Assembly (NCBI GenBank): GCA_036365515.1
Contig: CM070873.1
Location: forward strand, 193,997,104 to 194,061,103
Length of the DNA stretch: 64,000 bases
Direction of reading: 5' to 3'
Source of the DNA: Torymus aiolomorphi
Lineage: Eukaryota; Arthropoda; Insecta; Hymenoptera; Torymidae
Shown here piece by piece: positions 1,868 to 21,266 of this stretch. The position numbers were made by a program, and so were the translations under genes. Below the pieces are notes generated by a model. It was not told the origin of the DNA. It worked only from the letters and a program-made list of their open reading frames with translations, and searched no databases. Each line of letters starts with the position of its first letter. The first letter of the stretch is position 1.

Positions 1868-1868
1868 T

Positions 1869-1886
1869 TGGTCCTTCGAGCCGGAT
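1869..1886 (+). other. Primer-binding site of the BEL element, complementary to tRNA-Tyr
   Basis: TGGTCCTTCGAGCCGGAT starts two bases after the LTR. It is the complement of the 3' end of eukaryotic tRNA-Tyr, which ends CCGGCTCGAAGGA plus CCA. The tRNA assignment is from knowledge of tRNA-Tyr sequence, not a search. Confidence 0.75.
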
Positions 1887-2131
1887 AGGTTGTAAGGAGG
1901 AAACTACAGATCTGGAGTGGTGCACCGCTGACGCGAGTCCCAATAAGTGGGAGCGGTCGAGCATGTGGCGATTGACAGTGAAGAGCTCCTTCCGACGATC
2001 CGCCTGAGACGTCGCATTTGCTTTAATGAGCAATTGTGAGCGGCCAAGACTGGTCTTTGCTCGTCAATCATAAGATCGGTTTGCTTCTCTTTCTTTTCAG
2101 AAACCAAGGATAAGGTGCCCGGTTCGCTGCA

Positions 2132-3424
2132 ATGGAGGCTTGTCTGGCGGCACAAGCGGTGTTGACCTCTTACATCACCAAGTTTAAGGCGAACACTGAG
2201 AAGGCAGGACGTGCCCAATTTACCGCAGGATTCGTTCGCGGTCGACGCGAGCTTCTTTCGACCTATTGGGACAAGTTCACACTCAACCATCAGCAACTTT
2301 TGTCAGCCGAAGGCCACGAAGACAATGAGTACTTTACGAATGATCAGTACTCAGCGACCGAGCTCCAGTATACCTCCGCATTGGGATTTTTATATGATGA
2401 AGAAGCTAAACGGTCAGTCTTGCCCGACAATAGCACTACCAACGCCGCTCGTGAATCAAGAAGGGTCCACCTACCGAAGATCAGTATTCCCACCTTTTCC
2501 GGTCATCAAGAGGACTGGGAATCCTTTCGCGATCTTTTCCGCTCTCTCGTCCACTTAGACGCTGGATTATCAGGGGTCCAAAAACTCCAATATCTTAAGA
2601 CCTCCGTGCAAGGAGAAGCAAGAAGGGCGATTGATAGCCTTACGACGACGGAGGCGAATTACACAGTTGCGTGGGAGCTGCTTTTGAAACGCTACGACAA
2701 TAAACAGCTGATAGCACAGAAACACATGCTGGCTCTTGCCCGCATTCAGCCCTTGAAGCATGAGAGCAGCAGTGGGTTGCAGACCTTGGCTAATCGGGTG
2801 ATAAAGCATCGAGAGGCGCTACTCGCCCTTGAACGACCGGTAAAGCACTGGGATGAGTGGTTCGTCCTTTTTGCGGCTTTCGGGATGGATACCACCACCC
2901 GGCGAGAGTGGGAAAAGGAAATCAAATCATCTGGGATACCAGCTACTTATGACAAATTGATCTCCTTCCTTCAAGCATCCGTTGAGACCTTAAAAACCCT
3001 GGAATCCAGTCGTTCTGCTGCACGACCAGTCGAGTCGCGTTCAAAGAGCAGTCGAGATCGAGTGAGAGCTACCACAGTCCTTTCTACGGCTCAGGATCTA
3101 GAATCATGCCAAGCTTGTTGTGGAAATCATTCGTTGAGTCAGTGCAATGATTTTCGTCGAATGGACACCTCACGACGACTTCAAATCGCAACAAAGGCAC
3201 GCCTCTGCTATAATTGTCTGCGAAAGGGGCATAGTGCACGAGTCTGTTTGTCCAAAGGTCGGTGCCGACAGTGTGAACAGAGACACCACTCCCTCCTCCA
3301 TTTCGTGTCTTATGGGAAAAGGAGCAGCAATTCGCAAATTCTCGACGAGCCACCCACCAAGAAACCTCGAGGTATTGCTCCAGGGGTCTCTGACGGCTCT
3401 TCAGGCAAGGGCCCGAACGCATGA
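2132..3424 (+). CDS. gag: BEL/Pao Gag
   Basis: 430 aa structural protein forming the retrotransposon particle. The N-terminal part is the Pao-type gag region (LPKISIPTFSGHQEDWESF near residue 113 is the typical capsid start). Near the C-terminus are zinc-knuckle cysteine clusters (CQACCGNHSLSQC, CYNCLRKGHSARVC, CRQCEQRHHSLLH) for RNA binding. It begins with ATG 264 bp after the LTR. It ends in TGA at 3422-3424, after which the same frame continues straight into protease, so the stop may be readthrough or a lesion. The tail is basic and Pro-rich. Confidence 0.9.
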   Translation: MEACLAAQAVLTSYITKFKANTEKAGRAQFTAGFVRGRRELLSTYWDKFTLNHQQLLSAEGHEDNEYFTNDQYSATELQYTSALGFLYDEEAKRSVLPDNSTTNAARESRRVHLPKISIPTFSGHQEDWESFRDLFRSLVHLDAGLSGVQKLQYLKTSVQGEARRAIDSLTTTEANYTVAWELLLKRYDNKQLIAQKHMLALARIQPLKHESSSGLQTLANRVIKHREALLALERPVKHWDEWFVLFAAFGMDTTTRREWEKEIKSSGIPATYDKLISFLQASVETLKTLESSRSAARPVESRSKSSRDRVRATTVLSTAQDLESCQACCGNHSLSQCNDFRRMDTSRRLQIATKARLCYNCLRKGHSARVCLSKGRCRQCEQRHHSLLHFVSYGKRSSNSQILDEPPTKKPRGIAPGVSDGSSGKGPNA

Positions 3425-4279
3425 CTAGTGTTACTGGCATCGGCCGAGATACTTTTGGAGGACTCAGCTGGCGGAGTCCAACGCTGCCGTGCCCTTATCG
3501 ACCCTGGCTCGGAAATCAACATCGTCTCGTCAAGTCTCGCCCGGCGTTTAGGAGCCCCCCTTCGGGGCACTCAAATGTCCTTCCGGGTCATAGGAGGATC
3601 TTCATCCTGCACGGCACGCCAAACCGCTGTGCTACGTCTTCGTCCATCGGAGTCAAAGGACGATCCTTTCGATCTGGACGCTTTCCTCTTGCCGAAATTG
3701 GGGATCACCACTCCTCGTTTCATGGAAGGATCTGGAATCTGGCCACATTTGGAGGGTCTCCCACTTGCTGACCCGCATTTCATGAACTCCCTGATTGAAA
3801 TTCTTCTTGGCGCCGAGGTTTACGCTCGAATACTGCGAGACGGTTTGCGACGCGGCCCTCTCGGAACGTCCATCGCTCAAAACACATCTGTTGGATGGAT
3901 TATCTTTGGTGCCATCAGCCCACCTTCACTGGACTATTCTTGGGTACTTGCCTCATCAAGCACTTTTCCTTTGGAAGCCCTTGACCAGACGCTGAAAAGG
4001 TTTTGGGAACTGGAAGACATCGCTGCACCAAAGCCTTTATCAGCCGAAGAAAGAGATTGTGAACATTTGTTTCTCGAAGGATACCGCCGCTCGGGATCAG
4101 GACGATACATCGTCCGTCTCCCATTTAAAACACCACCCTTGCTTGATGCAAGGGGAACGCTTTTTCTAGCTAGACGATCTTTGCAACGTACCCTCGCAAG
4201 GATGCAAAGAGATGCGGAGTTTTCTGATCACTACCAAACGTTTATGAGAGATTACAATGATTTGGGTTACATGCGGTAA
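3425..4279 (+). CDS. pol: BEL/Pao protease and N-terminal part of RT region
   Basis: Same frame as gag. The retropepsin-type active site is ALIDPGSEINIVSS about 25 residues in; Pao proteases often vary the canonical DTG. The rest is the usual Pao spacer (VGWIIFGAI, FWELEDI) leading into RT (RRSLQRTLARM). It cleaves the polyprotein in the particle. It ends at an in-frame TAA (4277-4279); the next codons continue the RT domain in the same frame, so this is a break in pol rather than a natural end. Confidence 0.85.
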   Translation, partial: LVLLASAEILLEDSAGGVQRCRALIDPGSEINIVSSSLARRLGAPLRGTQMSFRVIGGSSSCTARQTAVLRLRPSESKDDPFDLDAFLLPKLGITTPRFMEGSGIWPHLEGLPLADPHFMNSLIEILLGAEVYARILRDGLRRGPLGTSIAQNTSVGWIIFGAISPPSLDYSWVLASSSTFPLEALDQTLKRFWELEDIAAPKPLSAEERDCEHLFLEGYRRSGSGRYIVRLPFKTPPLLDARGTLFLARRSLQRTLARMQRDAEFSDHYQTFMRDYNDLGYMR

Positions 4280-5197
4280 CTTCGCGGTCATCCCGACACT
4301 GTTGTCAGTCAAGCCCGATCGTATTTGCCTCACCACGGGATATGGCAATGTTCGGATCAATCTCGAAAGTTGCGGGTTGTCTTCAACGCCTCGAGTCGGA
4401 CTAAAGACGGACGATCTCTGAACGATGCCCTCCACACTGGACCCACGCTGCAGATCGACATTGTCAGCATTTTTCTGCGGTGGCGTCTCCATCGATTCGC
4501 AATGACGTCTGACATTGAAAAAATGTATCGTCAGATACAAATTGACGAGCGAGACCTCGATTTTCAGCGGATTGTCTGGCAGCCATCACCCGACGTGGAG
4601 GAAGCCCACTATCAACTCCTCACCTTGACATACGGATTGTCCTGTGCACCCTATCTCGCTTTAAGAGTCATACGACAATTAGCTGAAGACGAACACCATC
4701 GTTTTCCGAGTGCCGCTGATGTTTTAAGACAATCAACCTACGTGGATGATCTATTTTTCGGTGCTGATGACGTCAAAACCGCCCTCCAACTCCGAAATGA
4801 AGTGATTGACCTACTTCGGTGTGGAGGTTTTCCTCTTCGGAAGTGGGTGGCAAACAACCCCAGTTTGACAAGCGACCTCCCCGAAAAAGATCGACTGCGC
4901 CCACAATGGAAGGATTTCGAGAGCGATCAAACCGTGAGAACACTCGGGCTCTCGTGGGATCCCACGGAGGATGTGTACCGGTACCAGACGCCTCGTGCCA
5001 AAGGCCGAACTCCTGCCACAAAGAGATCGGCGCTCTCGATCATTGCTCGGCTATTCGACCCCATGGGGTGGTTAAGCCCAATTCTGATCAGGGCTAAGAT
5101 TCTCTTACAAAAAATGTGGCAAAGTAAGCTAGATTGGGATGATGACATGCCTTCTCCGCTTCGAGAACAGTGGCAGGACTTCATTGAGACGCTGTAA
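4280..5197 (+). CDS. pol: BEL/Pao reverse transcriptase domain
   Basis: Contains the RT fingers/palm motifs LRVVFNASSRT, FAMTSDIEKMYRQI, the PYLALRVI segment and the YVDD catalytic box at about 4739-4750, followed by connection sequence. It copies the element RNA into cDNA in the cytoplasmic particle. It shares the frame of protease upstream and RNase H downstream but is bracketed by TAA stops at 4277-4279 and 5195-5197. Whether these reflect ageing or assembly error cannot be told here; the LTRs look too similar for great age. Confidence 0.85.
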   Translation, partial: LRGHPDTVVSQARSYLPHHGIWQCSDQSRKLRVVFNASSRTKDGRSLNDALHTGPTLQIDIVSIFLRWRLHRFAMTSDIEKMYRQIQIDERDLDFQRIVWQPSPDVEEAHYQLLTLTYGLSCAPYLALRVIRQLAEDEHHRFPSAADVLRQSTYVDDLFFGADDVKTALQLRNEVIDLLRCGGFPLRKWVANNPSLTSDLPEKDRLRPQWKDFESDQTVRTLGLSWDPTEDVYRYQTPRAKGRTPATKRSALSIIARLFDPMGWLSPILIRAKILLQKMWQSKLDWDDDMPSPLREQWQDFIETL

Positions 5198-7309
5198 TCA
5201 GTAGAAGAAATCCGGATTCCACGTTGGTTGAGCACCCTATCAACTCAAGTCTTTGAACTTCACGGTTTTGCAGATGCCAGTAAAGTCGCGTACGCCGCAG
5301 TAATATATGTGATAGCTGTTGATCCCTCTGGACATCGGGGCTCAAGATTACTGATCACAAAAACTCGATCAGCTCCATTAAAAACTCAAACCATCCCTCG
5401 TCTGGAGTTGTGTGCTGCTGCGCTCCTGTCAAAACTTCTAACGAAGGTTCTTGGCGAATACGGTGAAAGAGTCGGCGCCGTCCATGCCTGGACAGATTCC
5501 AGTATTGTGCTGGCTTGGTTACGCGATGAGCCGTCTCGGTGGCCCATCTTTATTGCCAATCGAGTTGCACAGATTCATCGAGATCTGCCAACGGTTAAAT
5601 GGAGACATGTCCTGTCAGAGGAAAATCCGGCCGACTTGGTGTCTCGCGGTACGGATCCAAAAAGCCTTTGCCGTCGACGGGTTTGGTGGTCAGGACCTGA
5701 GTGGCTCACGAGGTCCATGGAATCCTGGCCACGGTATCAGCCACGTTCAGTTGAGGAACACTCCGAACTCAGAACGAACCAGACCCCAGCCGTCCTTTTC
5801 ACTCGAGAGATAAATGATGACTTTCTCCAACGTTTTTCCCATCTTGGAGATCTTCTTCGAACCATCGCCCGCTGTCTGAGGGTGACATGGCTATTACAAC
5901 CATCCAAAAGAGGCACGATGGAATCTCCCTTGTCCGCTGACGAACTTGATAACGCCTTCTTAAAGTGCCTTGGGTATGTACAGCGTCAAGTCTTCACGGT
6001 GGAGATCAACGCTTTAAGTCAAGGGCGAGCAGTTGGCAATCGTAGCCCGCTGCATACACTTCATCCATTTATCGATCCCCGTGGGCTTCTCCGTGTCGGT
6101 GGTCGACTTCATCATTCGCAGCTTCCTTATGATCAACGACACCCCGCTATTCTACCAAAAAAATGCCATCTTGGCAGATTAATTATTGAGAGAGCTCACA
6201 AGGCAGCAATGCATGGGGGTCCGGCTTTGACTTATTCCTACGCTATCAGAACGGTCTGGATCATTGGAGGTCGGGCGCAAGTCCGAGCATACGTTCGAAG
6301 TTGCGTGACTTGTGCTCGATTTCAGGCCACGCCTTCCAATCAGAGAATGGGGGATCTTCCCGCTGCTCGGATCACTCCAAATCGCCCCTTTTCACGGACA
6401 GGTCTCGATTATGCGGGACCTTTTATGCTCAAGGCCTCCAATCGTCGAGGAATTGCAAGCACCAAAGGATATCTGGCCATTTTTGTCTGTCTCTGCACCA
6501 AGGCCATACATATAGAGGTTGTGGGAGATCTCACCACGGCGTCATTCTTCGCCGCCCTTCGACGTTTCAGCTCGAGAAGAGGCACCCCCGCCGAACTTTG
6601 GTCGGACAATGCCACCACATTCCATGGCGCTGACGCAGCACTGCGGTCGATGCTAAGGGAGGCCCAGCATGATCAGACTCGAATAAGGAACGATCTTGCC
6701 GACCAGGGTGTTCGCTGGAAATTTATTCCTCCCGCGGCACCGCATTTCGGGGGCCTCTGGGACGCGGCCGTCAAATCGACGAAAACCCATCTGAAGAAAG
6801 TGGTGGGACAACGTCTACTAACATACGAAGAGATGTCGACCTTGGCAGCTCAGGTCAAACTCTGCCTAAACACACGTCCACTCACGCCATTGACCGGAGA
6901 TATTGAGGACCTGCAAGCGTTAACCCCAGGGCACCTTCTGACCGGTTTTGAACTAAACGCGATTCCCGAACCATCAACCAGTGAAAATGCAAATCTCGAT
7001 CACCTCACGCATTGGAACCTCATTCAAGGGCTAAGAAATCAGTTCTGGAAGCGATGGGCTAGAGATTATCTGCATACCTTACAGCAGAGGCACAAATGGA
7101 GTCGCTCACAAAACAACTTCAAAATCGGTGATCTCGTTGTGATTTTGGACCCTACCCTGCTGCAACGCGGCCGGCGGTGGCCTCTTGGCCGAATTGTCGG
7201 TGTCCACCCTGGTCCCGATGGACAAGTACGTGTCGCTACAATTCGAACACACTCAGGCGAATACATCCGGCCAATTGTGAAAATTTCACGTCTTCCGATT
7301 AGCACGTAG
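5198..7309 (+). CDS. pol: BEL/Pao RNase H and integrase
   Basis: RNase H motifs are LHGFADASKVAYAAV and AWTDSSIVLAWLR, with NPADLVSRG at its end. Integrase has an HHCC zinc module (H-x4-H ... CVTCAR), then LDYAGPF and WSDNATTFHG for the two catalytic aspartates, and PHFGGLWDAAVKS where the third acidic residue is Asp (codon 6761-6763) instead of the usual Glu. The C-terminal domain (GDLVVILDP, WPLGRIVGVHPGPDG) is complete and the frame ends with TAG 32 bp before the 3' LTR. Strand transfer may be impaired by the Glu-to-Asp change; this is inference. Confidence 0.9.
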   Translation, partial: SVEEIRIPRWLSTLSTQVFELHGFADASKVAYAAVIYVIAVDPSGHRGSRLLITKTRSAPLKTQTIPRLELCAAALLSKLLTKVLGEYGERVGAVHAWTDSSIVLAWLRDEPSRWPIFIANRVAQIHRDLPTVKWRHVLSEENPADLVSRGTDPKSLCRRRVWWSGPEWLTRSMESWPRYQPRSVEEHSELRTNQTPAVLFTREINDDFLQRFSHLGDLLRTIARCLRVTWLLQPSKRGTMESPLSADELDNAFLKCLGYVQRQVFTVEINALSQGRAVGNRSPLHTLHPFIDPRGLLRVGGRLHHSQLPYDQRHPAILPKKCHLGRLIIERAHKAAMHGGPALTYSYAIRTVWIIGGRAQVRAYVRSCVTCARFQATPSNQRMGDLPAARITPNRPFSRTGLDYAGPFMLKASNRRGIASTKGYLAIFVCLCTKAIHIEVVGDLTTASFFAALRRFSSRRGTPAELWSDNATTFHGADAALRSMLREAQHDQTRIRNDLADQGVRWKFIPPAAPHFGGLWDAAVKSTKTHLKKVVGQRLLTYEEMSTLAAQVKLCLNTRPLTPLTGDIEDLQALTPGHLLTGFELNAIPEPSTSENANLDHLTHWNLIQGLRNQFWKRWARDYLHTLQQRHKWSRSQNNFKIGDLVVILDPTLLQRGRRWPLGRIVGVHPGPDGQVRVATIRTHSGEYIRPIVKISRLPIST

Positions 7310-7326
7310 AGTTTCGCACTTCATGC

Positions 7327-7341
7327 GAAAAGGGAGCGGGA
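7327..7341 (+). other. Polypurine tract of the BEL element
   Basis: GAAAAGGGAGCGGGA immediately precedes the 3' LTR, the normal place for plus-strand priming. Confidence 0.7.
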
Positions 7342-7880
7342 TGTTTAACTTACTAGCATCCTGCGGCTAAGAACGGCGGAGCCTCGCGAGTCAGCGACCA
7401 TGTGGCTGGAAAAGATGGCGCCACCAGCGCTTTCTTGACGATTGAGCATCCGCGGCGCGCAGGCCACTGCGCACGATTCTCCGTTGTTCCTCGGTCTCGC
7501 GCTCGGCTATAAAAGCCCGGGCCGACTGCGTCTCGCGCTCAGTCTGCCGCAGCCAGCCAGCGGAACAGGACCATTGGACGACCTCGCCCCCGGAGACAGC
7601 AACCGTGAACTCGGTGACAGCCATCACATTACTAACATTCTTTCCTTTCAGGTTATTTTTCTTTCTTGATTTTCATTTATTGTCACTGATACGCCTTTCT
7701 TTTCCGATTTAGATTATTTTGTTATCATATATATATTCTTCTGTGCATTTTCATTTATCAATGTATTGTCTTTAATTGTCTAGCGCAAAGTTTGTATTTG
7801 ACTCAATAAAAAGTGTTAAGTCAAGCCAGATTCTGTAGCACCTTTCCTCACCTGATCCGGCGTCAAAGTTGAAAGAGACA
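7342..7880 (+). repeat. 3' LTR of the BEL/Pao element
   Basis: 539 bp, collinear with 1329-1867. Differences are G/A or C/T only. AATAAA is at 7805-7810. CATTT follows at 7881-7885. Confidence 0.95.
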
Positions 7881-7885
7881 CATTT
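7881..7885 (+). repeat. Right copy of the BEL target-site duplication (CATTT)
   Basis: Identical to 1324-1328. On the minus strand it falls in codons of the F-type envelope tail. Confidence 0.9.
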
Positions 7886-9559
7886 AAAACCGTGGTCCAA
7901 GGGGTACATTGGTACATATGAGTTTTCTGTTTCCACAGGACGACTGTCTTTATTTTTAAGTAAGCGGAAAGCAAAGTACGTGAATACACCCAAAAACGTG
8001 ACTATAATTATACTCAAAATTGCATAGAATACTATGTATAACAAATCTTTAGTAGTAATTGCCCCGCTGTTCTCGGCAATGCTACTCGCAATTTGCTTTT
8101 CTTTACTTTGTTTAAATATTAACTCTCGATGGATGTTTAACTTTAGATTAGGCACGATTATATCTTGATCATTATATCGGCCGTCAAAACCATAAACTTC
8201 GCGCTCATCGATTCTCATTTTACAATTTTTTGGCAGCTCTACAATTTGGCTCCCCGAGATAGGTATTTTGTAAATATTTCCCGAGCACATAACTTCTAGC
8301 CTATGTTCATTTATGGTTGACGCTAGCCACAAATGCTTGTTTGTCATTCTTTGAAAATACTGCTCCTTTCCTTGCGAAAACTGAATATTGCATAAAGGCA
8401 ATTCCCCATAATTTGGTTTAGATAACAACATTTTCTCACATGATATATAATTTTCAAAATAAAATTCGTTTTCACAAAGAAAAAAGGTATTTCTTTCGTC
8501 ACATTTATTCAAGTCCGACTGGTTTAGAAATAGATACCGATCACTCGAATCGCCTACAGCGATATAATCTGCTCTCGGCTTAATATGAGCTGCTAAGGTT
8601 TTATCTTCAAAATTTGCTTGGAAAACTGGAAAAGGTTGCATTTCATAAAGCAAGAAAAGATCTTTATCGGTAAATGGTATTACCCTTTCAATAAATAATT
8701 CATTATTAACAAACACAATATGCACCTTAACCAACTGTCCCAACAAAATTGAGCCGAAATTCGATATAAAAAATGGCAAAGACAATTTTCTATCATCCCT
8801 AATTTGGATTAAAAATTTATTTAATTCTGCAGAAGTAAACAATACTTTTTGGTGCCCCAATAAATCACACAAGTTCAAAATAAGCTGCTTAGATTTTCCG
8901 ATTATTTCGAGCAATTCATATAAATTTTCTAAGATAAATTGAAAGTTAACGTCGACTTTATGTTCACCCCACGGTACTTTTGTAATTTGCTTATGCAATT
9001 TTTCAAATTTCTGCTGGATGATTAAACTTTCGCGCGCGTAGTCATTTTCAATTACGCAGGTGTTCACCCTGTCTCCCGGCATTATCTCAAGTTTATCCTC
9101 GCGCAATTTACCCATAAAAAAACTAATTTCCCTATAATTTTCTAATACATAACTCGTGGGGGGAACATTAAACTCCTCTCCCCTAGGGACCACTACGAGG
9201 TCGTAAAACAACTCGCTTTTTCTCAAATTTTTTGTTACTTCGTGAAGATTACGCAATTCAACGTCCAGTATTCTAACCATATGAGTTATTGTGCCGTTCG
9301 ATTTGCGCATCTGTTGGTATGCATCGCGGATAGCCTCCAATTCTGCTCTGCCCTGCTTAGTCGCCGTCTTGATAAACTCCGTATTGACCGATGTTACGAC
9401 ACTCCACTTTTCCTTGATAAACACCACCTCTTTGGACTTAACAAACACCAGCCCTGGATTATTGTCAATGGCATGATAATAGGGCATTAAATCCTTTTGT
9501 AACGAGCTTGAAATGCTCATCAGCAATGCACAACCCTTTATTAGAAGTTTAAAGCCCAT
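7881..9559 (-). CDS. env: Baculovirus F / errantivirus-type envelope glycoprotein, body (C-terminal tail displaced to 1116-1323)
   Basis: About 559 residues precede the BEL insertion, with 69 more beyond it. ATG is at 9557-9559. A hydrophobic N-terminus (residues 4-20) suggests a signal peptide. It is followed by NNPGLVFVKSKEVVFIKEKW, the pattern typical of the Baculo_F/errantivirus Env family. A central helical region and a cysteine-rich stretch (residues about 355-460) follow. A strong membrane segment (about 506-534, YIVFYAILSIIIVTFLGVF) is followed by a Tyr-containing tail. Family members are class I-like fusion proteins in the particle membrane. I see no clear furin site. The reading frame is open across the body; the BEL insertion replaces the natural tail with LTR-encoded residues. 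Confidence 0.8.
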
Positions 9560-9811
9560 AGCTATTGTGTTTACTGCCTACCACTTTCCCTTTTGCTGAA
9601 AACCAATAATTACCAAAAATAAGATAAGGTTTTATCTACTACAAAAGAATTTCAAGAATGCAAAAAGGTATCGCTAAAGCAGTTTATTTGTGTAAAAGCA
9701 AGTTTTTTTTTTGTTGATTTTTTTTTGTTATTTGACACCTACAAAGTGCAACGTTACATTGTCTATTAATGACAAACTGTGCTGTGATCTTTTTTTTTTT
9801 TTTGCAATTTA
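9560..9811. other. Non-coding spacer between the Cys-rich ORF and the F-type envelope
   Basis: AT-rich with several T-tracts (plus strand) and no coding potential. It probably carries the splice acceptor for the F-type mRNA, but I cannot choose one site. Confidence 0.4.
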
Positions 9812-10717
9812 TCATTCCTTAATTTGTTTACATGGTAGCTCCCCTTCTAAACCGCGCCTAAACTCATTAAGTGTCATGTCTCCAAATTCTCTTTTGCCCA
9901 TTAGGTTATCAAATTCTATCTGCGTCATAGTCCAAGTAGCCTTAGTTTTATTGGTGGGCCAATAAAGGCTCTCTACACGCGGCACAAATTCCTTGCTACT
10001 ACCTGCGACCTGGGAGCTTGACCCACCTATCTTTGAGCCGCTGTGCCTACGTCCGCACGGCGCTTCTGGTTTCTTGGCCACAGCACTTACATCACGAACA
10101 ATATTAGCTTGATTACTCAAATTAAAGTCATTATTAACATTCATATTTTTAACACGATCGTCCGCTTGCGATGATTCGCCTCCTGTTACGCTTACAATGA
10201 TTGGCATCGGATTTTCCCCTATATTTACGTTTATGCCATTAGAACTATCCAAATTTGCTACTGCTGTAAAATCGGCGGCCGCAAACGCTTGAGGCTGAAT
10301 CCCCGCTGTGGGAAGCTCAGTTCTCCCGTTGTTTCGGAGGCGCCATAAGGCTATAAGATCATTAGTCAGCTTTAACAAACAGTCGTTGTACCATAGTACT
10401 GATGATGCATTCATGAGCACGTGCGCATGTATAGTTTCGATTTGCGAGATTGTGGGCGATTGTTCCAAATGTATTTCAACTAACGGGTGCCTCGTGGTTA
10501 CCTGCTTTATGTCTCTCCTAACAAATGTTACATTTGATTTGCAAATAGCACATTTGATTATTCTAATTAAGCTTAAATTCTGACTGCACGTTCTGGCCAA
10601 TTCTAACGTATACAAATTTTGCAATAAAGGATGCAATTTATTCATGAAACACATAGCGCATACGTGCTCCTCCCTGAATCCGTAGGCCACCCGCTCGTAA
10701 TTACGAATTATCGACAT
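9812..10717 (-). CDS. Accessory ORF of the retrovirus: N-terminal Cys-rich domain with low-complexity tail
   Basis: 301 aa from ATG at 10715-10717. Residues about 20-60 contain C-x2-C (VCAMC), an isolated Cys (ARTC) and a second C-x2-C (KCAICKS), a plausible zinc-binding fold. The middle is helical (LLKLTNDLIALWRL). The rest is Asn/Ser/Gly-rich with a basic patch (CGRRHSGSK), then a folded-looking C-terminus (TMTQIEFDNLMGKREFGDMTLNEF). The LxLxRxxxCxxC arrangement resembles the neighbour at 10747-11103, suggesting duplication. It lies between the Gag-like ORF and the F-type envelope and is uninterrupted, so it was probably maintained by the element. Function unknown. Regulatory (zinc finger) or Gag-like nucleic-acid binding roles are both possible. 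Confidence 0.65.
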   Translation of the reverse strand: MSIIRNYERVAYGFREEHVCAMCFMNKLHPLLQNLYTLELARTCSQNLSLIRIIKCAICKSNVTFVRRDIKQVTTRHPLVEIHLEQSPTISQIETIHAHVLMNASSVLWYNDCLLKLTNDLIALWRLRNNGRTELPTAGIQPQAFAAADFTAVANLDSSNGINVNIGENPMPIIVSVTGGESSQADDRVKNMNVNNDFNLSNQANIVRDVSAVAKKPEAPCGRRHSGSKIGGSSSQVAGSSKEFVPRVESLYWPTNKTKATWTMTQIEFDNLMGKREFGDMTLNEFRRGLEGELPCKQIKE

Positions 10718-10746
10718 GTTACTCTAATTCAAAGTGATTTTAGGAG

Positions 10747-11103
10747 TCAATACAAAACCTCGGCTATTAGATAAGATAGCAATTCCTCACCTACTAACAT
10801 GTAAACCCGGATACACCTTTCACAAGATTCACCTGTTCGCAAAAACAGTAATTGTCGGTGGCAAACTTTATAACACGTTGGTACAGCAACACTAGAGTGC
10901 ACGAGTATGTGATAATCAATACAGGGTTCAAGTAATCGAAACGGGTCTTCTACACGCGTGGAGTAACAATTTTTACAAAAGAAGTTATAAGATTCTTCGT
11001 CTACATACACTATTTTGTCTCCTTCTCGCACGCTCCAGCAGGGATGTTTTCGCAGGCGTTCTAACGCTTGCGCGAAGCCAGACCTTACACTCTGCTCTAA
11101 TGG
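10747..11103 (-). CDS. Accessory Cys-rich ORF without an ATG, opening directly after a splice-acceptor-like site
   Basis: The frame is open for 118 codons from CCA at 11103 to the stop at 10747. There is no ATG at its start. Immediately upstream (minus strand) is ATCTTTTTTAG, a strong 3' splice-site pattern with AG at 11104-11105, so this is likely a downstream exon of a spliced transcript. The protein has FFCKNC, an isolated Cys, TCYKVC and SCERC, probably zinc-coordinating, and a helical C-terminus. It is similar in spacing to the first part of the 9812-10717 ORF. Function unknown. Confidence 0.55.
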   Translation of the reverse strand, partial: PLEQSVRSGFAQALERLRKHPCWSVREGDKIVYVDEESYNFFCKNCYSTRVEDPFRLLEPCIDYHILVHSSVAVPTCYKVCHRQLLFLRTGESCERCIRVYMLVGEELLSYLIAEVLY

Positions 11104-11142
11104 CTAAAAAAGATAATTTGTAAACTACTTTAAATTTCAGAA

Positions 11143-11523
11143 TTAAATTAAATCATTATGATTACAAACTACTGTTCGCATGTTTGCCAAATCATCAAGG
11201 TGGTAAGCGATTTGCTCGGCATGACGTCGCGCTTGCGCAAAATTATTATAAAATTCCGGCTTACACATATAACGCTTAATGCTAAGTTGCAACCCCGAGA
11301 CATAGCAAAAGATCGCCAATCTTTCTCGCTCCAATTCAGATTCAGTAACTTCAATCATCCCTTTATTCGCAATTCTGCCCGCATGAGCATAGACTTCATA
11401 AGTACGCTGCATTCGCGTGCTATATGCGAGCAATCGCTCGTTTCGGTTCTGAGCCGCCCATACTAAACGACTCCTAAGCGTGATTAAATCGTCAAGCAAT
11501 GATTTCTTCTGACTAGGTCTCAT
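11143..11523 (-). CDS. Free-standing Gag capsid-like accessory ORF
   Basis: 126 aa, ATG at 11521-11523. By eye it aligns with the C-terminal capsid region of the element's own Gag (21267-22955). NERLLAYSTRMQR matches ENIITFANRVRR. LSIKRYM matches WEIKRCM after FxVxG/YVSG. FAQARRHAEQI matches FQEAVEKAIEI. It lacks the zinc knuckles and the N-terminal half of Gag. It sits just downstream of the G-like glycoprotein. Possible roles include a Gag-interfering protein, as Ty1 p22 (a Gag fragment) limits assembly, or a minor structural protein; both are inference. Intact and without stops. Confidence 0.6.
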   Translation of the reverse strand: MRPSQKKSLLDDLITLRSRLVWAAQNRNERLLAYSTRMQRTYEVYAHAGRIANKGMIEVTESELERERLAIFCYVSGLQLSIKRYMCKPEFYNNFAQARRHAEQIAYHLDDLANMRTVVCNHNDLI

Positions 11524-11589
11524 TTTAATGGTTTGAGTGAATAGATACTGTTTTTTATTATTAATTACAAGTAAAAGTTAAAAGTTAAT

Positions 11590-13620
11590 TCAAACTATAT
11601 TTCGCGGCGGTAAAAATGGTTTATTTTGTTCGTTTAGTATGGGGTATAGCTTATTTTCGATTACTTCTGGATTATTTTTTGAATTATTTTCTGACCATTG
11701 GCACTCCAACTGATATTTCTGTGTAGTACAGGTAAACGGAGCTTCGGCGGCAGACGGAGCAGACGGCCCTTTAACAGGCTCACCTTCCTTCGATTTTTCC
11801 GGTTCGTGGTCTTTCCCCAAATGTAAAAGCAGGTGCGTAAGCGAATTCCAGAGAGCTCCTAAAATGTGCACCGACCAACCATAAAGGCTGTATAAAACAT
11901 ATCCGTGAATAATGGTGTCAAGTATAAATTTAATTAAACGGAAAATCATAAGAAGAGATATAAACGCTGCGCTTACTGACCGAAAGGTAATTAACCGCGA
12001 CCAAACACGGCCCCATGCAGAGTCGGCAATGCGTGAAAGCGCTTCCTCATCGAGGAGACCCGAAATCGATCCGGACCCAGTCATTCTGCCTTTGCCCGAA
12101 TAACCGTACGCCAAATCGTTTAAAATCGCGCCCCTCTCGTTCGGAAACATAATAAAATTTTTTAAGCTTTCAATGTCCCCGTAGGAATAAATTCCGCTAT
12201 TAGCTAAATCTGTTGGATTATTATAAGTCCATGATTGCTGAATTTGTGGCTTTAAAATTGACGGCGTGTCTTGTATGTTAATCTGTGACAACATTTTAAA
12301 CCATCGCTCTCCTATCAAAAACATAACCGGAATCATAGTATCGCATTTCGCTTTTGTGCCAAATTCACGTAAAATGTGAGTCCGTGGTGCTAAAAATAGC
12401 AATTTATCCTCCCATGATACAGGCAATTCCTGATAGCAATCTTCCGTCGGCCTAACCTTCATTTCGACCTGTACACACTTCAATATATGCACCACCTCGC
12501 CGGCCAATAGGCTTATATAGCCCGGTCCCTTCATGATTTGATACGCTAATAAATCGGGCGAGATAGTAGCTATACTAAGTGAATTAGCGAGTACCTTACG
12601 TTCTAATTCGCACTGTTTTTCTAGTATATCCCGGTACAATCGTGTCATTTGCCCCTTAATGTGCGCGTCTACATACACAAATTTCGAATTTACGTATGCA
12701 AAAATATCAGTGTTGCTAATACTAACCCCTTTTTGGACTATTAATCTCTCATGCTCCGGATCAAGCAAGATAAATAATTTCAGGTGCTCCGTGCGAATTA
12801 ATTGATAAGAGCAAACGTTTACTAGACCGATGTCTTTAAACGCGAAAGGCAATCCTTCCGCTTCCAAAACATACAACGGCCGGCGCTCATTATCCTTCTC
12901 AATAACCTTCATTACTGGCCCGGTATACAAGGAAGTATATTTACGAGCCTCGCACGGGCCCGTAGATATCATATCCCAAAACGCGTAACCGAATTGCATA
13001 TCTATGCAATGATCATCAGTAAATGAGCACTGCGTGCCCGATTCTAATCTGATTTTGTTATTATTCAAGTTAACCGCGTTAAAACGTTCTTCCAATTTTA
13101 TGGTCGCATACCCGTGCACAACTACGTCATAAAATTCTCCGTACGGGTCAGAATAGTGACCTGTGTTGGCACACGAGCCGTCCGCTTTAATAGCTCCTGC
13201 GAACGTGATTGGAAACGTAACCGAGTCATTTATCCTCAATCCTCCGAGAGCGTTCTCCGCGATAGTAATTGACTTATGCACGTGCATTTTAACACACTCG
13301 TCTCTGGTTACTTCACGTAAGAAATTCACTTTTCCGTTTTTAACGTGAGAGATATGCGACCACATACCGCAATGCGCAACCGTTCTTTTAATTTCCACTT
13401 TACAATATCTAACTAGCGTATCAGCGTACTAGTTTATTTGTAAAAGGCTAATTTCCGTTTTAGTAACGTTAACGATCGGTTCCGGCAGGTCGCACTCTTC
13501 CACATTAACCAAAGAAAACGTAGTAAAATTAGTGAATTTTTGTCCACAATCAAATCCGATCAGCCCGAAAGTTATCTTAATTTTCAAAGTTGTTGCGAGA
13601 ATGAACATCAAAGTCCTCAT
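11590..13620 (-). pseudogene. Second envelope gene: chuvirus-G-like glycoprotein with one in-frame stop
   Basis: The frame starts at ATG 13618-13620 with a hydrophobic leader (residues about 3-22) followed by FDCGQ and the TFSLVNVEECD pattern that I associate with glycoproteins of chuviruses (order Jingchuvirales). Only a TAG at 13429-13431 (codon 64) interrupts it; after it the same frame runs to 11590. The large ectodomain has many cysteines and CKVEIKRTVAHCGMWSHI. Several hydrophobic segments occur near the C-terminus (SAAFISLLMIFRLIKFIL, YGWSVHILGALW), then a Pro/Glu/Lys-rich tail ending in PPRNIV. It would act in the membrane as an attachment/fusion protein. It is unrelated by eye to the F-type envelope of the same element. 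The viral family assignment is by recollection of motifs and needs a search. Confidence 0.6.
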
Positions 13621-13646
13621 CTGTAATCATGAATAAAAATGTTAAC
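13621..13646 (-). promoter_or_regulatory. Splice-acceptor-like site abutting the ATG of the G-like gene
   Basis: On the minus strand ACATTTTTATTCATGATTACAG is followed at once by ATG. Envelope genes of retroviruses are normally made from spliced RNA, so this is a good acceptor candidate. A donor-like AAAGTAAGTAA lies in the LTR/leader near 23324-23334. Confidence 0.4.
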
Positions 13647-13678: not shown

Positions 13679-16600
13679 TTACAAGCTTTCGGAGTCTGCG
13701 TGAGGTTTAACATGCGACAAGCGTAAACGATTACTATGCACAACTTTGGTCTTACTTTCATTAGTTTGAATTTTTACATTGCCATTTTCCCAGATTTCAA
13801 TTATTAAGTAAGGGCCAGAATATTGATTTTCAAATTTATGCGGCTTTGGCCCGCTCTGCAACCACATAAAATCGCCTATTTTGAAATTCTTATGATTTGA
13901 CTTTTTATCATAATATCTTTTACTTTTTTGTTTAGCGGATAATAGATTTTCTTGTGCGGTTCTTTGAAGAAAATTCAATCTTTCGACCAAAGTTGTCATG
14001 TACCCCGCGTAAGTAGGCAATAAATCTTCCGGCTCTAAGGGGTCGCTCGAGGGCACTCTCGCCAGGCGTCCGAACACTAACTCGAACGGAGTATGCTGGG
14101 TTCCTTCATGTTTGCCCGTGTTGAAATTAAACATTGCTAACTCAACCCACTCGTCCCAATCTAAATGTTTCGTGGCAAACATTTTCAAAAATTCACTAAG
14201 TGGCGAGTGCGAGCGCTCTAAAGAGCCGTTAAATTGAGGGTGAAAAGCGGTAGTTTTTACTTGCTTAATTTTAAATCGTTTTGCAACGCGCTTAACTAAT
14301 TTACTAAGAAAATTGGTGCCTTGATCGGTAAGCATAGCTTGCGGCGCGCCAAAAGTGCAAATAAAGCGTTTGATAAAAGCATCTGCTACAGTAATGGCAG
14401 TCTGGTCTTTTAAAGGGACTCCCACCGAGAATTTTGTAAATTGATCCTGCATAGTTAAAATGTACTCGGATTCGTCTTTAGTTCTCGGTAACGGTCCTAC
14501 GATGTCCAAACTAACCGTGAAAAATGGAATACAAGGGTGGTCCATTATAATCATTTTCTGTTTTGTTTTGACCCGCACTAATTTTTTAAGCTGGCAAGGA
14601 ACGCATTTTTGAATGAAGGCTTGTATGTCCTCCTTTAAATGCTCCCACTGATATTTATATTTTATTCTATTCAAAGTTTTAGTTACTCCTTTGTGTCCAT
14701 CCGCCGCCGAACAATGAGCTTCGTGAATTATATCCGCTCTTTTACTCGGCTCCAGGTGCTGTATGAGTCCACGGCAAATAATTATTTTAACACTATTATT
14801 ACCTAATTCACGTCTTAAAGAGGCCAAAATATCTTTAAACTCAACATTTTCGATATTACTGCTCCTAGCCATACTAAAAGAAGCAATTTGATTAATATCT
14901 AAAAATTTTGCTAACTTCCTAAGTAACTGGGCCAAAATTTCTAAGGTATCCGATAAACTATTTTTACCTTTGCCCCTAAGTGGTAATACAAAATGCATTT
15001 TTTTATTGGCCTTAATGATTTTAGGCTCTCCCGTTACTAAATTCTCAAAATGCGGAAGCTTCCCTAAATCCTTTAATTGCCTAGACCCCTCATCGAGCGG
15101 TTCTCCGTCCGTGCTCACAAAATAAAGGTAACTATCCTTCCTCATAAACAATTTCTCTCTACAATAGATTATATTGTCTTGAGGACCGACCGCTTTCAGC
15201 GCGACACTTTTTTCATTGACCGCGTCCTCGTCCCCGAAAGTCATGTCGGAGAAGGGACCTTTAAACACCGAGATGTTGTCGCGCCCGGATGCTTCCCGGC
15301 ACGCGAGCTCTCCTGACATAACCGTTTGCTCACTTTCCTCGGGCGCGAACGCAGAGACAGATGGCGAGATTGGTCTGTGCAGCGTTTCTTTTTTATTGCT
15401 ATCCGCAGCTTGCGGTACGAGAGACGCAGACGTCTCCTTATCTTCGACAAAGGACGCGCATTCCTGAACCTCTTCGACCGCGGGGGCTTTCTTTCTTTTA
15501 CGCGGCGCGAGAGCTTTAATGGCTTGCTTATACTTTTCAGTGGCTTGGCGGCCCGCACGCTTACGCGTGGCCATTGGATGCAAGGTGGGCACGCCGTCCC
15601 CCTGCTGGGTTTGCCGTTCCTGGGGCGGCTCTACTGTCTGTTCGCCAGCGACAGCATGGCGCCCCTCTCCCCCTATGCTGACTTGTGTAGCTACGCATAC
15701 TTCTTCTATAATCGGGTTGCGCGACAGTGCGTCCGCGTTCAGATTTAATTCACCTTTCTTATAGAGTACATCGAATTGATAGTCTAAAAGTTTTAAACGC
15801 CAACGCGTGACTCTAGATCCTGGATCATTATGATTGTTCAACCAAACTAGCGGCCTGTGATCAGTAATTAAAGTGAATTTATTCGCGTATAAGTAAGGTC
15901 TGAATTGCGTAATAGCGTACACGATTGCTAATGCTTCTTTTGAAAACGTACAATAATTCTTTTCTGCTTGATTCATCGCGCGCGACACAAAGGCTATGGG
16001 ACGATCTTTTCCAATTTCTCCTTGCGATAAAACTGCCCCGATTGCATACCCGCTAGCGTCGGTAGTTACTAAAAACTTTTCTTCGAAATGCGGATGCGCT
16101 AAAACCGGTGGTTCGCATAATTTATCACGGAGAGTCTCAAATGCCGTTTGCGCGTTCTCATCCCAAACAAAAAGTTGTTCTTTTCTAAGAAGGTCAGTTA
16201 AAGGCTTGGCTATTCGTGCAAAGCCATTAATAAATCGCCTATAATAACCAGCTAGTCCTAAAAATTGTTTAATATTTTTCTGATTTCTAGGCACTGGAAA
16301 TTCTTCAACTGCTTTTAGTTTTTCCGGGTCCGGGCGTAAACCGTCACCGTTAATTATATGTCCCAAATAATTAATTTCCGGTTTAAGAAATTCGCATTTT
16401 TCCGGTTGCAAAACTAAATTAGCATGGCGCAGTTTTTCAAACAACTTCTCGATTGTTTCTATGTGCTCGTTAAAAGTTTTAGAGTAGACGCAAATGTCAT
16501 CAAAAAAATGAACCACGTTTTTCATACCAGCAATTACTTTAAGAACGAGTGACAAAAATACCGGAGCGCTTGTCTTTAATCCAAAAGGCGATCTAACAAA

Positions 16601-17758
16601 ATGAAATAAACCGAGCTCACAAGAAAAAGCTGTTTTTTCTCTGTCCTCAGCTTTAATTTTAATTTGATGATAACCCGCGTATAAATCGAAAACTGAGAAA
16701 AATTTGGCATCACCAAGCTGATCCAAAATATCCGCTATGTTCGGAACCGGATGATTGTAATCGGGTATAATGGCGTTCAACTTTCTAAAGTCTACTACTA
16801 CCCGAAATTTTTTCTTGCCGTCGGGTCCCGGTTTTTTGTCAACACAGAACACGGGCGCCGAGTAGGCACTTGTTGAAGGTTCGACGATGCCTTTCTCTAA
16901 CATTTCTTTTACCTGCCTATTGATCTCTTCTTTTAGAATAGGTGGGTGTCTAAATTGTTTAATTCTAATTGGAATATTCGTTGTTGTGAGTATTTCGTGT
17001 TCAATTACATTTGTCGCGGGCATAATATCTCCCGCTAAATAAAATCGATCCGAAAATTTCACAAGGAGTGACTCAATTTCGGCTAATTGATTAGGTGACA
17101 AATGCTTAAGACGTAAAAGCTCTCTTAATTTAGCCACCCTCTCATTTCCTAAAAGGAAAACCGTGTCTGACATGCACATAATTTGATGGTCGCGTGGCTC
17201 CGCTATTTTATGGCTCCGCCTTTCTACCCTAATTTGGCTACTTAAGTGCGGAGGGTGCGGCCTATGCTCCCATACTGACCAGACTACTCCATTTATATTT
17301 CTTTTAATTTGATGTAGCATCTGGCGTAAAGTGCATAACATGTCAGAGGTCACCTCGCCCTCCGACATGCGATACTCTCTCATTTTCTTAAAAATAGGAA
17401 TGGCGGTGAAACACGTAACATTTAAAGCGCAAGAGTATAAGCGTAATAATGAACTACTTTTCCATGCTTGCAGAAAGGTTAACTTCTTTAGCTTGACACG
17501 CAACCCCTCAAAAAGGTGCGCCAGCTGAAAGTCTTCTCGAACTAAAGCATAAGACAATGCGCTGGTTAATTTATTACTTCCGCCCTTCTCAATATTGCCG
17601 GACAACGATAACTTTTGCTTCCTCAATAATTTACTAATTTTGCTAAAACTATTCCTTTTAATTTTAGTTTTTTTATGAGTTTCATGCTTGTATTTAATAC
17701 ACGTAAAATTCCTTATTTTATTACAAACAAAATTTACTTTTCTCCTACTTTTATTCAA
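13679..17758 (-). CDS. pol: Retroviral pol: reverse transcriptase, RNase H and integrase (upstream part split off by jockey-like insertion)
   Basis: About 1359 codons, intact. RT motifs are VVVDFRKLNAIIPDYNHPVP, FSVFDLYAGYHQI, SPFGLKTSAPVF and the catalytic FFDDICVYS. RNase H has TTDASGYAIGAVL, SKEALAIVYA and ITDHRPLVWL. A long linker with basic patches (ATRKRAGRQ, PRKRKKAP) follows. Integrase has an HHCC module (H-x8-GHKGVTKTL ... CVPCQ), LDIVGPL, LTDQGTNF and FNGSLERSH for DDE, and a C-terminal domain (KIGDFMWLQSGP). Domain order is Ty3/gypsy. The frame joins the protease region at 19902-21246 exactly across the duplicated target site. The stop lies 58 bp before the G-like gene. Confidence 0.92.
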   Translation of the reverse strand: MNKSRRKVNFVCNKIRNFTCIKYKHETHKKTKIKRNSFSKISKLLRKQKLSLSGNIEKGGSNKLTSALSYALVREDFQLAHLFEGLRVKLKKLTFLQAWKSSSLLRLYSCALNVTCFTAIPIFKKMREYRMSEGEVTSDMLCTLRQMLHQIKRNINGVVWSVWEHRPHPPHLSSQIRVERRSHKIAEPRDHQIMCMSDTVFLLGNERVAKLRELLRLKHLSPNQLAEIESLLVKFSDRFYLAGDIMPATNVIEHEILTTTNIPIRIKQFRHPPILKEEINRQVKEMLEKGIVEPSTSAYSAPVFCVDKKPGPDGKKKFRVVVDFRKLNAIIPDYNHPVPNIADILDQLGDAKFFSVFDLYAGYHQIKIKAEDREKTAFSCELGLFHFVRSPFGLKTSAPVFLSLVLKVIAGMKNVVHFFDDICVYSKTFNEHIETIEKLFEKLRHANLVLQPEKCEFLKPEINYLGHIINGDGLRPDPEKLKAVEEFPVPRNQKNIKQFLGLAGYYRRFINGFARIAKPLTDLLRKEQLFVWDENAQTAFETLRDKLCEPPVLAHPHFEEKFLVTTDASGYAIGAVLSQGEIGKDRPIAFVSRAMNQAEKNYCTFSKEALAIVYAITQFRPYLYANKFTLITDHRPLVWLNNHNDPGSRVTRWRLKLLDYQFDVLYKKGELNLNADALSRNPIIEEVCVATQVSIGGEGRHAVAGEQTVEPPQERQTQQGDGVPTLHPMATRKRAGRQATEKYKQAIKALAPRKRKKAPAVEEVQECASFVEDKETSASLVPQAADSNKKETLHRPISPSVSAFAPEESEQTVMSGELACREASGRDNISVFKGPFSDMTFGDEDAVNEKSVALKAVGPQDNIIYCREKLFMRKDSYLYFVSTDGEPLDEGSRQLKDLGKLPHFENLVTGEPKIIKANKKMHFVLPLRGKGKNSLSDTLEILAQLLRKLAKFLDINQIASFSMARSSNIENVEFKDILASLRRELGNNSVKIIICRGLIQHLEPSKRADIIHEAHCSAADGHKGVTKTLNRIKYKYQWEHLKEDIQAFIQKCVPCQLKKLVRVKTKQKMIIMDHPCIPFFTVSLDIVGPLPRTKDESEYILTMQDQFTKFSVGVPLKDQTAITVADAFIKRFICTFGAPQAMLTDQGTNFLSKLVKRVAKRFKIKQVKTTAFHPQFNGSLERSHSPLSEFLKMFATKHLDWDEWVELAMFNFNTGKHEGTQHTPFELVFGRLARVPSSDPLEPEDLLPTYAGYMTTLVERLNFLQRTAQENLLSAKQKSKRYYDKKSNHKNFKIGDFMWLQSGPKPHKFENQYSGPYLIIEIWENGNVKIQTNESKTKVVHSNRLRLSHVKPHADSESL

Positions 17759-17763: not shown

Positions 17764-17766
17764 TTT

Positions 17767-17813
<47 letters not shown>

Positions 17814-17816
17814 TTT
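17764..17816 (+). repeat. (TTTA)n tail of the jockey-like insertion
   Basis: Thirteen or so tetranucleotide units on the plus strand. On the element's own strand this is the (TAAA)n 3' terminus used in target-primed reverse transcription. Confidence 0.85.
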
Positions 17817-18125
17817 CCAGAAAATATTTACATTACATTATTATATACGAAATATACATAAGTAAGTAAATCCTACTGAGGCAAATATTATTGCCTGTGT
17901 GTAGATCTGGTACACAGAAATCTTACAAACTAAAAAAAATATTACAAACTAAAAAATTCTTAAAAAACTATATAATGGTATGTGCGTAGTGTTTGTTAAC
18001 ATCGATAAAATCCATTGTAGTACATAAATAACAGTTAAATAATTTGTTAGATATATTGGTTAAGATTTAATTATTATTTTGAAATTATATTGCATCTTTT
18101 ACTATAAACATTTTTAATTTTTTCT

Positions 18126-19898: not shown

Positions 19899-19901
19899 TT
19901 A

Positions 19902-19909
19902 TATTCAAT
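19902..19909 (-). repeat. 5' copy of the target-site duplication of the jockey-like insertion
   Basis: Minus-strand ATTGAATA, matching 17752-17759. Excising the insertion plus one copy keeps pol in frame. Confidence 0.7.
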
Positions 19910-21246: not shown

Positions 21247-21266
21247 AATGGACTTTCGTGCAAATT

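What the first reader, a model, noticed from the sequence alone, without database searches (positions are those of the whole stretch)
7881..13620. One retrovirus-like element carrying two unrelated envelope glycoprotein genes
Downstream of a Ty3/gypsy-type pol there are two membrane glycoprotein genes in the same orientation. The first (11590-13620) has chuvirus-G-like motifs; the second (7881-9559 plus tail at 1116-1323) has the baculovirus F/errantivirus pattern. Capture of either type by LTR retroelements is established. Both together, with three or more accessory ORFs between or after them, is not something I know to be described. It may represent a complex insect retrovirus that acquired a second entry protein.
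Basis: partly seen in the sequence, partly recalled or inferred. Interest (0 to 1): 0.87.

Follow-up and report, generated by a model that had tools for sequence, protein, structure and literature searches.

The report
Insect retrovirus-like element, two envelope genes
A dead, retrovirus-like element in what is probably an insect genome carries two unrelated virus-type surface proteins plus extra genes in one continuous gene row; one of the two looks altered where such proteins are normally cut and activated, so it may have been sidelined by the other.

Summary
On the minus strand lie a Ty3/gypsy-type gag and pol, then a chuvirus-type G gene (Pfam Monjiviricetes_fusion, 585 bits), accessory ORFs (one clearly conserved), then a baculovirus-F/errantivirus-type env (Baculo_F, 56 bits, cut-off 24). 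This copy is dead: a LINE lies in pol, G has one stop codon, and a young BEL/Pao element (LTRs 99% identical, 5-bp target duplication) splits F. No LTR-sized repeat lies between pol, G, the accessory ORFs and F, and the pol-G (58 bp) and G-ORF126 (66 bp) gaps are too short to hide one. The simplest reading is one provirus with two unrelated glycoproteins. F lacks a full furin consensus in its ectodomain, here and in the relatives seen, and its middle third does not match the Baculo_F profile; but a conserved hydrophobic stretch (259-277), with a minimal RXXR before it in 3 of 5 sequences, may be a displaced fusion site. My bolder reading, G as working fusogen beside a demoted F as in group I alphabaculoviruses, is therefore only moderately supported. 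Not settled: the 3' LTR is outside the window, the host genome could not be searched (24 attempts unanswered), and no second copy with both genes was seen.

The parts
23095..24198 (-). putative 5' LTR: TATA-like box 23849-23842, 26-bp tandem repeats about 23573-23741, AATAAA 23475-23470, end ...GTTACA at 23095; 5' start uncertain
   Evidence: read from the sequence; repeats; no second LTR in the window, so boundaries are inferred
23073..23092 (-). primer-binding-site-like stretch, 2 nt after the LTR end; tRNA not assigned
   Evidence: sequence reading only
21267..22955 (-). gag, 562 aa, two CCHC knuckles
   Evidence: Pfam zf-CCHC 1.9e-5, two stretches; Ty3_capsid 0.01 is below its cut-off
19867..21300 (-). 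pol, first part: protease (ORF 21246-19867), then Lys/Asn-rich repeats
   Evidence: Pfam RVP 4.6e-4; 60-bp tandem repeat array 20170-20582
17766..19900 (-). 5'-truncated LINE inserted in pol (not part of the element); 5' junction approximate
   Evidence: RVT_1 1.2e-32 on 19862-18816; YADD-type motif and TAAA tract read by eye; no clear target duplication found
13679..17758 (-). pol, second part: RT, RNase H, integrase (Ty3/gypsy type)
   Evidence: Pfam RVT_1 8.8e-27, RT_RNaseH 4.8e-36, Integrase_H2C2 4.2e-15, rve 3.5e-10
11590..13620 (-). G: chuvirus-type (Jingchuvirales) fusion glycoprotein; one in-frame stop at 13431-13429; PSAP and YPxL motifs in the tail
13621..13640 (-). splice-acceptor-like site abutting the G start codon
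   Evidence: rank 4 of 199 YAG sites in the scanned stretches by a simple score; site first picked by eye
11143..11523 (-). ORF126: resembles the capsid C-terminal part of the element's own Gag
   Evidence: Smith-Waterman 54 against shuffle mean 32.7, 1 of 500 shuffles as good; nothing significant by BLASTP or Pfam
10747..11103 (-). Cys-rich open frame (118 codons) without an early ATG, preceded by an acceptor-like site; possible exon
   Evidence: acceptor rank 6 of 199
9812..10717 (-). ORF301: accessory protein; conserved N-terminus with spaced Cys residues, poorly conserved tail
   Evidence: 4 relatives, best 44% over 97%, E 4.9e-68; length beyond chance
7881..9559 (-). F: baculovirus-F/errantivirus-type env, from start codon to cytoplasmic tail; no RX[KR]R; minimal RXXR at residue 254 before a hydrophobic stretch 259-277
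   Evidence: Baculo_F 4e-15
1116..1323 (-). F: rest of the cytoplasmic tail
   Evidence: matches P0003 C-terminus, E 2e-10
1329..7880 (+). BEL/Pao element inserted in F (not part of the element)
   Evidence: LTRs 1329-1867 and 7342-7880, 99.07%; DUF1759, Peptidase_A17, Integrase_H2C2
1324..1328 (.). left copy of the 5-bp target duplication of the BEL/Pao element (right copy 7881-7885)

Best explanation
One gypsy-type endogenous retrovirus of an insect, probably hymenopteran, carried gag, pol, a chuvirus-type G, an accessory region and an F-type env in one provirus. SHOWN: the gene array, its shared strand, the absence of LTR-sized internal repeats other than the BEL/Pao intruder's, the identity of both glycoproteins, and the later damage (LINE in pol, one stop in G, BEL/Pao in F). 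INFERRED: the array was one RNA genome; G was made from a spliced RNA (acceptor-like site abutting its ATG) and was the main fusogen, with late-domain motifs in its tail helping budding; F, altered in the region where cleavage site and fusion peptide usually lie, was kept in a lesser role (attachment, incorporation or accessory), like F in group I alphabaculoviruses after GP64 took over. My probabilities: one provirus with both genes about 0.8; G as main fusogen with a demoted F, given that, about 0.5 (lowered from 0.6 after one search showed a possible displaced fusion site in F).
For: Pfam hits of G, F, gag and pol. Gaps of 58 bp (pol-G), 66 bp (G-ORF126), 425 bp (ORF126-ORF301) and 252 bp (ORF301-F); no LTR-sized repeat in the array apart from the BEL/Pao pair. 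Similar preservation: gag, the pol pieces, ORF126, ORF301 and F are open apart from insertions, G has one stop. ORF301 has 4 relatives. All 4 F relatives, all 4 ORF301 relatives and both G relatives at 75% or more are from source class 'ena', against 19 of the 120 listed G rows (my count): a weak sign of one family. F: the profile matches residues 275-457 strongly; residues 100-300 as a piece match nothing at E 10; no RX[KR]R in window F, P0001, P0002 or P0004. G tail motifs: YPxL in 6 of 11 and P[TS]AP in 4 of 11 tails, shuffles give 0.39 and 0.05. Loss of F fusion beside GP64: PMC4864199 (passages).
Against: No 3' LTR in the window, so the outer limits are unproven. No second copy with both genes; no contig length is shared between F, ORF301 and listed G relatives (120 of 159 G hits shown), and the 9,320-bp contig with F relative P0001 matches no listed G row. 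ORF126 resembles Gag, which could mark a recombination join. F's acceptor-like site is unremarkable (rank 53 of 199), ORF301's too (rank 82). Against demotion of F: a hydrophobic stretch at 259-277 (mean hydropathy 1.52) is conserved in 5 of 5 F sequences (1.40-1.67), with a minimal RXXR within 12 residues before it in 3 of 5 (window, P0002, P0004), so cleavage and fusion at a displaced site are possible; P0004 also has RXXR at 144, and P0003 has RDRR at 310, after the anchor. The N-terminal profile match (18-112, E 0.0099) appears for a 130-aa piece but not a 240-aa piece, and P0001 and P0003 gave no Baculo_F hit. Models of F and ORF301 were poor (pLDDT 42 and 32). No named F was aligned as a control; where the furin site normally lies is recalled.
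Confidence: 0.6

Rival explanations
1. Composite locus: two elements side by side or recombined. A gypsy-type element with G was joined, by nested insertion or template switching, to a pol-less remnant of another element that supplied the Gag-like ORF126, ORF301 and F; the two glycoproteins never served one virus.
For: ORF126 resembles a Gag capsid end, as might be expected at the start of a second element's remains. No second copy or matched LTR pair was found. P0001's 9,320-bp contig carries F and matches no listed G row.
Against: ORF126 starts 66 bp after the G stop, too little for an LTR and leader; no LTR-sized repeat marks a join; the parts are about equally intact; ORF126 is a capsid end only, with no protease or RT between it and F. 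If template switching joined them before insertion, this is the origin of the best explanation rather than a rival.
Confidence: 0.2
2. Two active fusogens: G and F both mediated entry, for example into different cells or by different triggers, F being cleaved at a displaced site.
For: F is intact up to the recent insertion, has a signal-peptide-like start (read by eye) and a membrane anchor, and its relatives are 56-74% identical. A conserved hydrophobic stretch (259-277; 5 of 5 sequences) follows a minimal RXXR in 3 of 5.
Against: No RX[KR]R in the F ectodomain, whereas furin site and fusion peptide are among the most conserved motifs in 17 Drosophila errantiviral Env proteins (PMC12992720, passages). 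P0001 and P0003 lack the RXXR before the stretch. The stretch adjoins the conserved core of the profile, so it may simply be part of the fold.
Confidence: 0.2
3. Host-domesticated region: the array is no longer a provirus but host-kept envelope genes (solo glycoprotein defence, as proposed for mosquito chuvirus glycoproteins).
For: Solo chuvirus glycoproteins were proposed to be domesticated in mosquitoes (PMC7642597, passages).
Against: gag and pol lie beside them; G has a stop codon and F a recent insertion, so neither is kept intact here.
Confidence: 0.03

Closest known systems
Errantiviruses / insect endogenous retroviruses with env-F (Metaviridae, Ty3/gypsy)
   Same: gypsy-type gag-pol with an F-type env downstream
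   Different: a G gene sits directly after pol; F comes after accessory ORFs and lacks RX[KR]R in its ectodomain; Gag has two CCHC knuckles
Anakin (BEL/Pao element with chuvirus-type glycoprotein, mosquitoes; Dezordi 2020, PMC7642597, passages)
   Same: chuvirus-type G captured by an LTR retroelement
   Different: here the carrier is gypsy-type, and a second, F-type env follows
Jingchuvirales glycoprotein EVEs beside Gypsy fragments in Hymenoptera (Dezordi 2023, PMC10084718, Results and Discussion)
   Same: G relatives in ant genomes; gypsy association
   Different: that paper found no clear evidence of capture by Gypsy; here G lies 58 bp after a gypsy pol with no boundary seen
Group I alphabaculoviruses (GP64 plus non-fusogenic F; PMC4864199, passages)
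   Same: an F without a furin consensus beside an unrelated fusogen gene
   Different: DNA virus; GP64 is not a chuvirus G; an analogy in function only, and F's loss of fusion is not shown here
Gypsy elements with type III fusion glycoproteins (PMC13172572, passages; Chary and Hayashi, eLife 2025, not held)
   Same: gypsy carriers of a class III-type env
   Different: the passages seen do not mention two env genes in one element; the eLife paper could not be read

Membership tests
Ty3/gypsy (Metaviridae) LTR retroelement | pol order protease, RT, RNase H, integrase | tested here: met
   pol is split by a LINE
Ty3/gypsy (Metaviridae) LTR retroelement | flanking LTR pair with target duplication | tested here: inconclusive
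   5' LTR-like region only; no matching 3' LTR in the window
Errantivirus (env-F gypsy) | F-type env homologous to baculovirus F | tested here: met
   Baculo_F 55.9 bits, cut-off 24.1
Errantivirus (env-F gypsy) | furin cleavage site and fusion peptide in Env | tested here: inconclusive
   no RX[KR]R and no profile match for residues 100-300, but a minimal RXXR at 254 before a conserved hydrophobic stretch 259-277
Errantivirus (env-F gypsy) | pol within the errantivirus clade | not tested
   no named reference pol sequences were held; no tree was made
Jingchuvirales-type G | Monjiviricetes fusion glycoprotein domain over most of its length | tested here: met
   profile positions 78-619 of 653, 585 bits
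Anakin | BEL/Pao carrier | tested here: not met
   carrier pol is gypsy-type; the BEL/Pao element present is a later intruder with no env domain among the four ORFs scanned
Group I alphabaculovirus-like GP64/F pair (analogy) | unrelated working fusogen beside a furin-less, non-fusogenic F | tested here: inconclusive
   no full furin consensus in the F ectodomain but a possible displaced site; function not testable here
Complex retrovirus (works like) | accessory genes expressed from spliced RNAs | tested here: inconclusive
   ORF301 conserved; acceptor-like sites stand out for G and the 10747-11103 frame, not for ORF301 or F; no RNA data

The most novel reading that the evidence does not exclude
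A complex insect retrovirus caught in the middle of swapping its fusogen: a class III-type G from a negative-strand RNA virus took over entry, while the class I-type F lost its usual cleavage and fusion parts but was kept, together with conserved accessory genes (a Cys-bearing protein and a second, Gag-derived capsid-end protein). It would be the retroid counterpart of the GP64-for-F replacement in group I alphabaculoviruses.
Probability: 0.36. Interest if true: 0.8.

Novelty: new variant of a known kind. Interest (0 to 1): 0.62.

Why it matters
LTR elements become retroviruses by capturing an envelope gene, and lineages swap envelopes, but the step between is rarely seen. A provirus with two unrelated glycoproteins, one possibly disarmed, would show that step and make it testable whether a new fusogen relaxes selection on the old one's cleavage site and fusion peptide, independently of the baculovirus case. 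If F proves active instead, it would be a retroelement with two entry routes. Either way it is a gypsy-type carrier of chuvirus-type G, for which the 2023 survey (PMC10084718) found no clear evidence.

Tried and rejected
Rejected: that RT ORF 19862-18126 is a second LTR element's pol; it ends in a TAAA tract and reads as a LINE. Rejected: that the 2132-7309 ORFs belong to the element; they are a BEL/Pao intruder. Not supported: that the frame at 10747-11103 is a paralogue of ORF301 (no profile similarity; shuffle score no better than chance). Structure models of F and ORF301 were too poor to search, so no fold comparison was made. Solved-structure sequence searches with F and G gave only chance-level rows. 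PHROGs gave only weak rows.

Led nowhere: scans of viral contigs (F, G, ORF301 alignment, G alignment, gag) and of prokaryote contigs (F alignment, G alignment). Contig lengths do not link the F, ORF301 and G relatives. Paper searches: no paper on two env genes in one element stood out in the titles and abstract openings listed by nine of my ten searches (one search found no paper at all; the tenth was on baculovirus F). This does not cover subscription papers or the eLife 2025 paper, which is not held.
Full report
WHAT IS THERE. The element lies on the minus strand from about 24.2 kb down to at least 1.1 kb. In order: a 5' LTR-like region with a TATA-like box and a polyadenylation signal; gag, 562 aa with two CCHC knuckles; pol with protease, then a LINE insertion, then RT, RNase H and integrase of Ty3/gypsy type; G; ORF126; a Cys-rich open frame; ORF301; and F. 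G scores 585 bits against Pfam's Monjiviricetes_fusion (E 1.7e-175) and F 55.9 bits against Baculo_F (E 4e-15, cut-off 24.1). The two share no significant BLASTP similarity.

WHAT BROKE IT. Three lesions: a 5'-truncated LINE in pol (RT ORFs 19862-18126, TAAA tract 17766-17815); one stop codon in the G frame at 13431-13429; and a BEL/Pao element in F (1329-7880, LTRs 99.07% identical over 539 bp, 5-bp target duplication). The BEL/Pao insertion is recent, judging from its LTRs. Apart from these, gag, the pol pieces, ORF126, ORF301 and F are open, so the parts are about equally preserved.

ONE ELEMENT OR TWO. The gaps are 58 bp from pol to G, 66 bp from G to ORF126, 425 bp from ORF126 to ORF301 (mostly filled by an open frame) and 252 bp from ORF301 to F. 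Repeat searches found no LTR-sized repeat pair within the array other than that of the BEL/Pao element; a 60-bp tandem array in pol and short repeats of 24-65 nt occur. A nested insertion between G and ORF126 is therefore very unlikely. What is missing is the outer proof: nothing in positions 1-1115 matches the 5' LTR-like region, so the 3' LTR lies beyond the window or behind another insertion. The host genome tool did not complete (24 attempts, listed under Tried and rejected). Scans of viral and prokaryote collections found no relatives.

RELATIVES. F has 4 relatives in the protein database (identity 56% over 82% of the query, and 70-74% over 57-60%). G has 159 with E up to 0.001 among the candidates scored, of which 120 were listed; the best are 81% over 98% and 75% over 64%; below these stand two at 53-55% and the rest at 45% or less. 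Of the 120 listed, 14 carry a species name: ants and Orussus, all Hymenoptera (taxonomy recalled). ORF301 has 4 relatives (best 44% over 97%). All 4 F relatives, all 4 ORF301 relatives and both G relatives at 75% or more are from the source class 'ena', against 19 of 120 listed G rows (my count). This hints at one family in one data set but proves nothing, and no contig length is shared among the three groups. The host is probably hymenopteran, by inference from G only.

THE F PROTEIN. The Baculo_F profile matches residues 275-457 (profile 289-475). A weak N-terminal match (residues 18-112 to profile 15-114, E 0.0099) appears for a 130-aa piece but not for a 240-aa piece, and residues 100-300 as a piece match nothing at E 10; of the relatives, P0002 and P0004 match Baculo_F, P0001 and P0003 do not. 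There is no RX[KR]R in window F, P0001, P0002 or P0004; P0003 has one at 310, after the anchor. Hydropathy between residues 90 and 240 peaks at 1.03, against 2.6 in the anchor. Against this, a hydrophobic stretch with glycine at 259-277 (1.52) is conserved in 5 of 5 sequences (1.40-1.67), and in 3 of 5 (window, P0002, P0004) a minimal RXXR stands within 12 residues before it. It adjoins the conserved core, so it may be ordinary fold or a displaced fusion site; I cannot tell. In 17 Drosophila errantiviral Env proteins furin site and fusion peptide are among the most conserved motifs (PMC12992720, passages). In group I alphabaculoviruses F lacks the furin site and lost fusion, with GP64 doing the work (PMC4864199, passages). 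No named F protein was aligned here as a control, and where the furin site normally lies is recalled.

THE G PROTEIN. G keeps the fusion domain over most of its length (profile 78-619 of 653, scored downstream of the stop). Chuvirus-type glycoproteins are called type III fusion glycoproteins in PMC13172572 (passages). Its cytoplasmic tail holds PSAP and YPxL. Among 11 G tails (an alignment of the window plus 12 relatives that I chose from the 120 listed, two truncated rows dropped), YPxL occurs in 6 and P[TS]AP in 4, while shuffled tails give 0.39 and 0.05. These are the classic ESCRT-recruiting late-domain motifs (recalled). The CAG directly before the G start codon ranks 4th of 199 acceptor-like sites in the scanned stretches by a simple score; the site before the 11103 frame ranks 6th; those before F and ORF301 rank 53rd and 82nd. 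The sites had been picked by eye first. So splicing is suggested for G and the Cys-rich frame, not for F.

ACCESSORY ORFS. ORF301 is far longer than chance (303 codons; simulated maximum 185 in 1000) and conserved, with spaced Cys residues in its N-terminus. ORF126 aligns with the capsid end of the element's own Gag (1 of 500 shuffles as good), though BLASTP and Pfam do not see it. It may be a second, Gag-derived protein or a scar of recombination.

READING. Best supported: one gypsy-type provirus with two unrelated glycoproteins (about 0.8). Mechanism that I commit to: G was the main fusogen and F a retained, lesser envelope protein (about 0.5 given the first; lowered). Rivals are a composite of two elements (0.2) and two active fusogens (0.2).

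NOVELTY. Capture of either type by LTR elements is known: env-F in errantiviruses (PMC12992720, passages), chuvirus-type G in BEL/Pao Anakin (PMC7642597, passages). The 2023 survey found Gypsy fragments beside G in Hymenoptera but no clear capture by Gypsy (PMC10084718, Results and Discussion read). In nine of my ten paper searches no title or abstract opening pointed to two env genes in one element. The most relevant paper (Chary and Hayashi, eLife 2025) is not held, so an earlier description there cannot be excluded. I call it a new variant of a known kind.

Noticed in passing
window 1-444 (minus), runs off the window: Open frame of at least 148 codons, Trp- and Cys-bearing, no Pfam match above cut-off; with a short Arg-rich ORF within 592-873. 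Possibly another insertion, but a further gene of the element is not excluded.
   Followed up: partly
window 20170-20582: 60-bp tandem repeat array in pol between protease and RT, coding a Lys/Asn-rich 20-aa unit that stays in frame.
   Followed up: no
window 23573-23741: 26-bp tandem repeats inside the putative 5' LTR, downstream of the TATA-like box.
   Followed up: no
window 11590-11900 (minus): Late-domain motifs (PSAP, YPxL) in the tail of the chuvirus-type G, also in several of the relatives looked at. In a glycoprotein tail rather than in Gag this seems unusual (recalled).
   Followed up: partly
window 43310-44092 (plus): Fragment of another gypsy-type RT-RNase H, 41% identical to the element's pol.
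   Followed up: no
window 24513-26026 and 31075-32124 against 58318-59411, 61502-61899 and 62031-63081: Repeated blocks, 86-88% identical, in the same order: probably two copies of an unidentified repeat.
   Followed up: no
window 29887-30420 and 49607-50065 (plus): Transposase remnant (DDE_Tnp_1_7) and an ORF with a Baculo_FP_2nd domain match.
   Followed up: no
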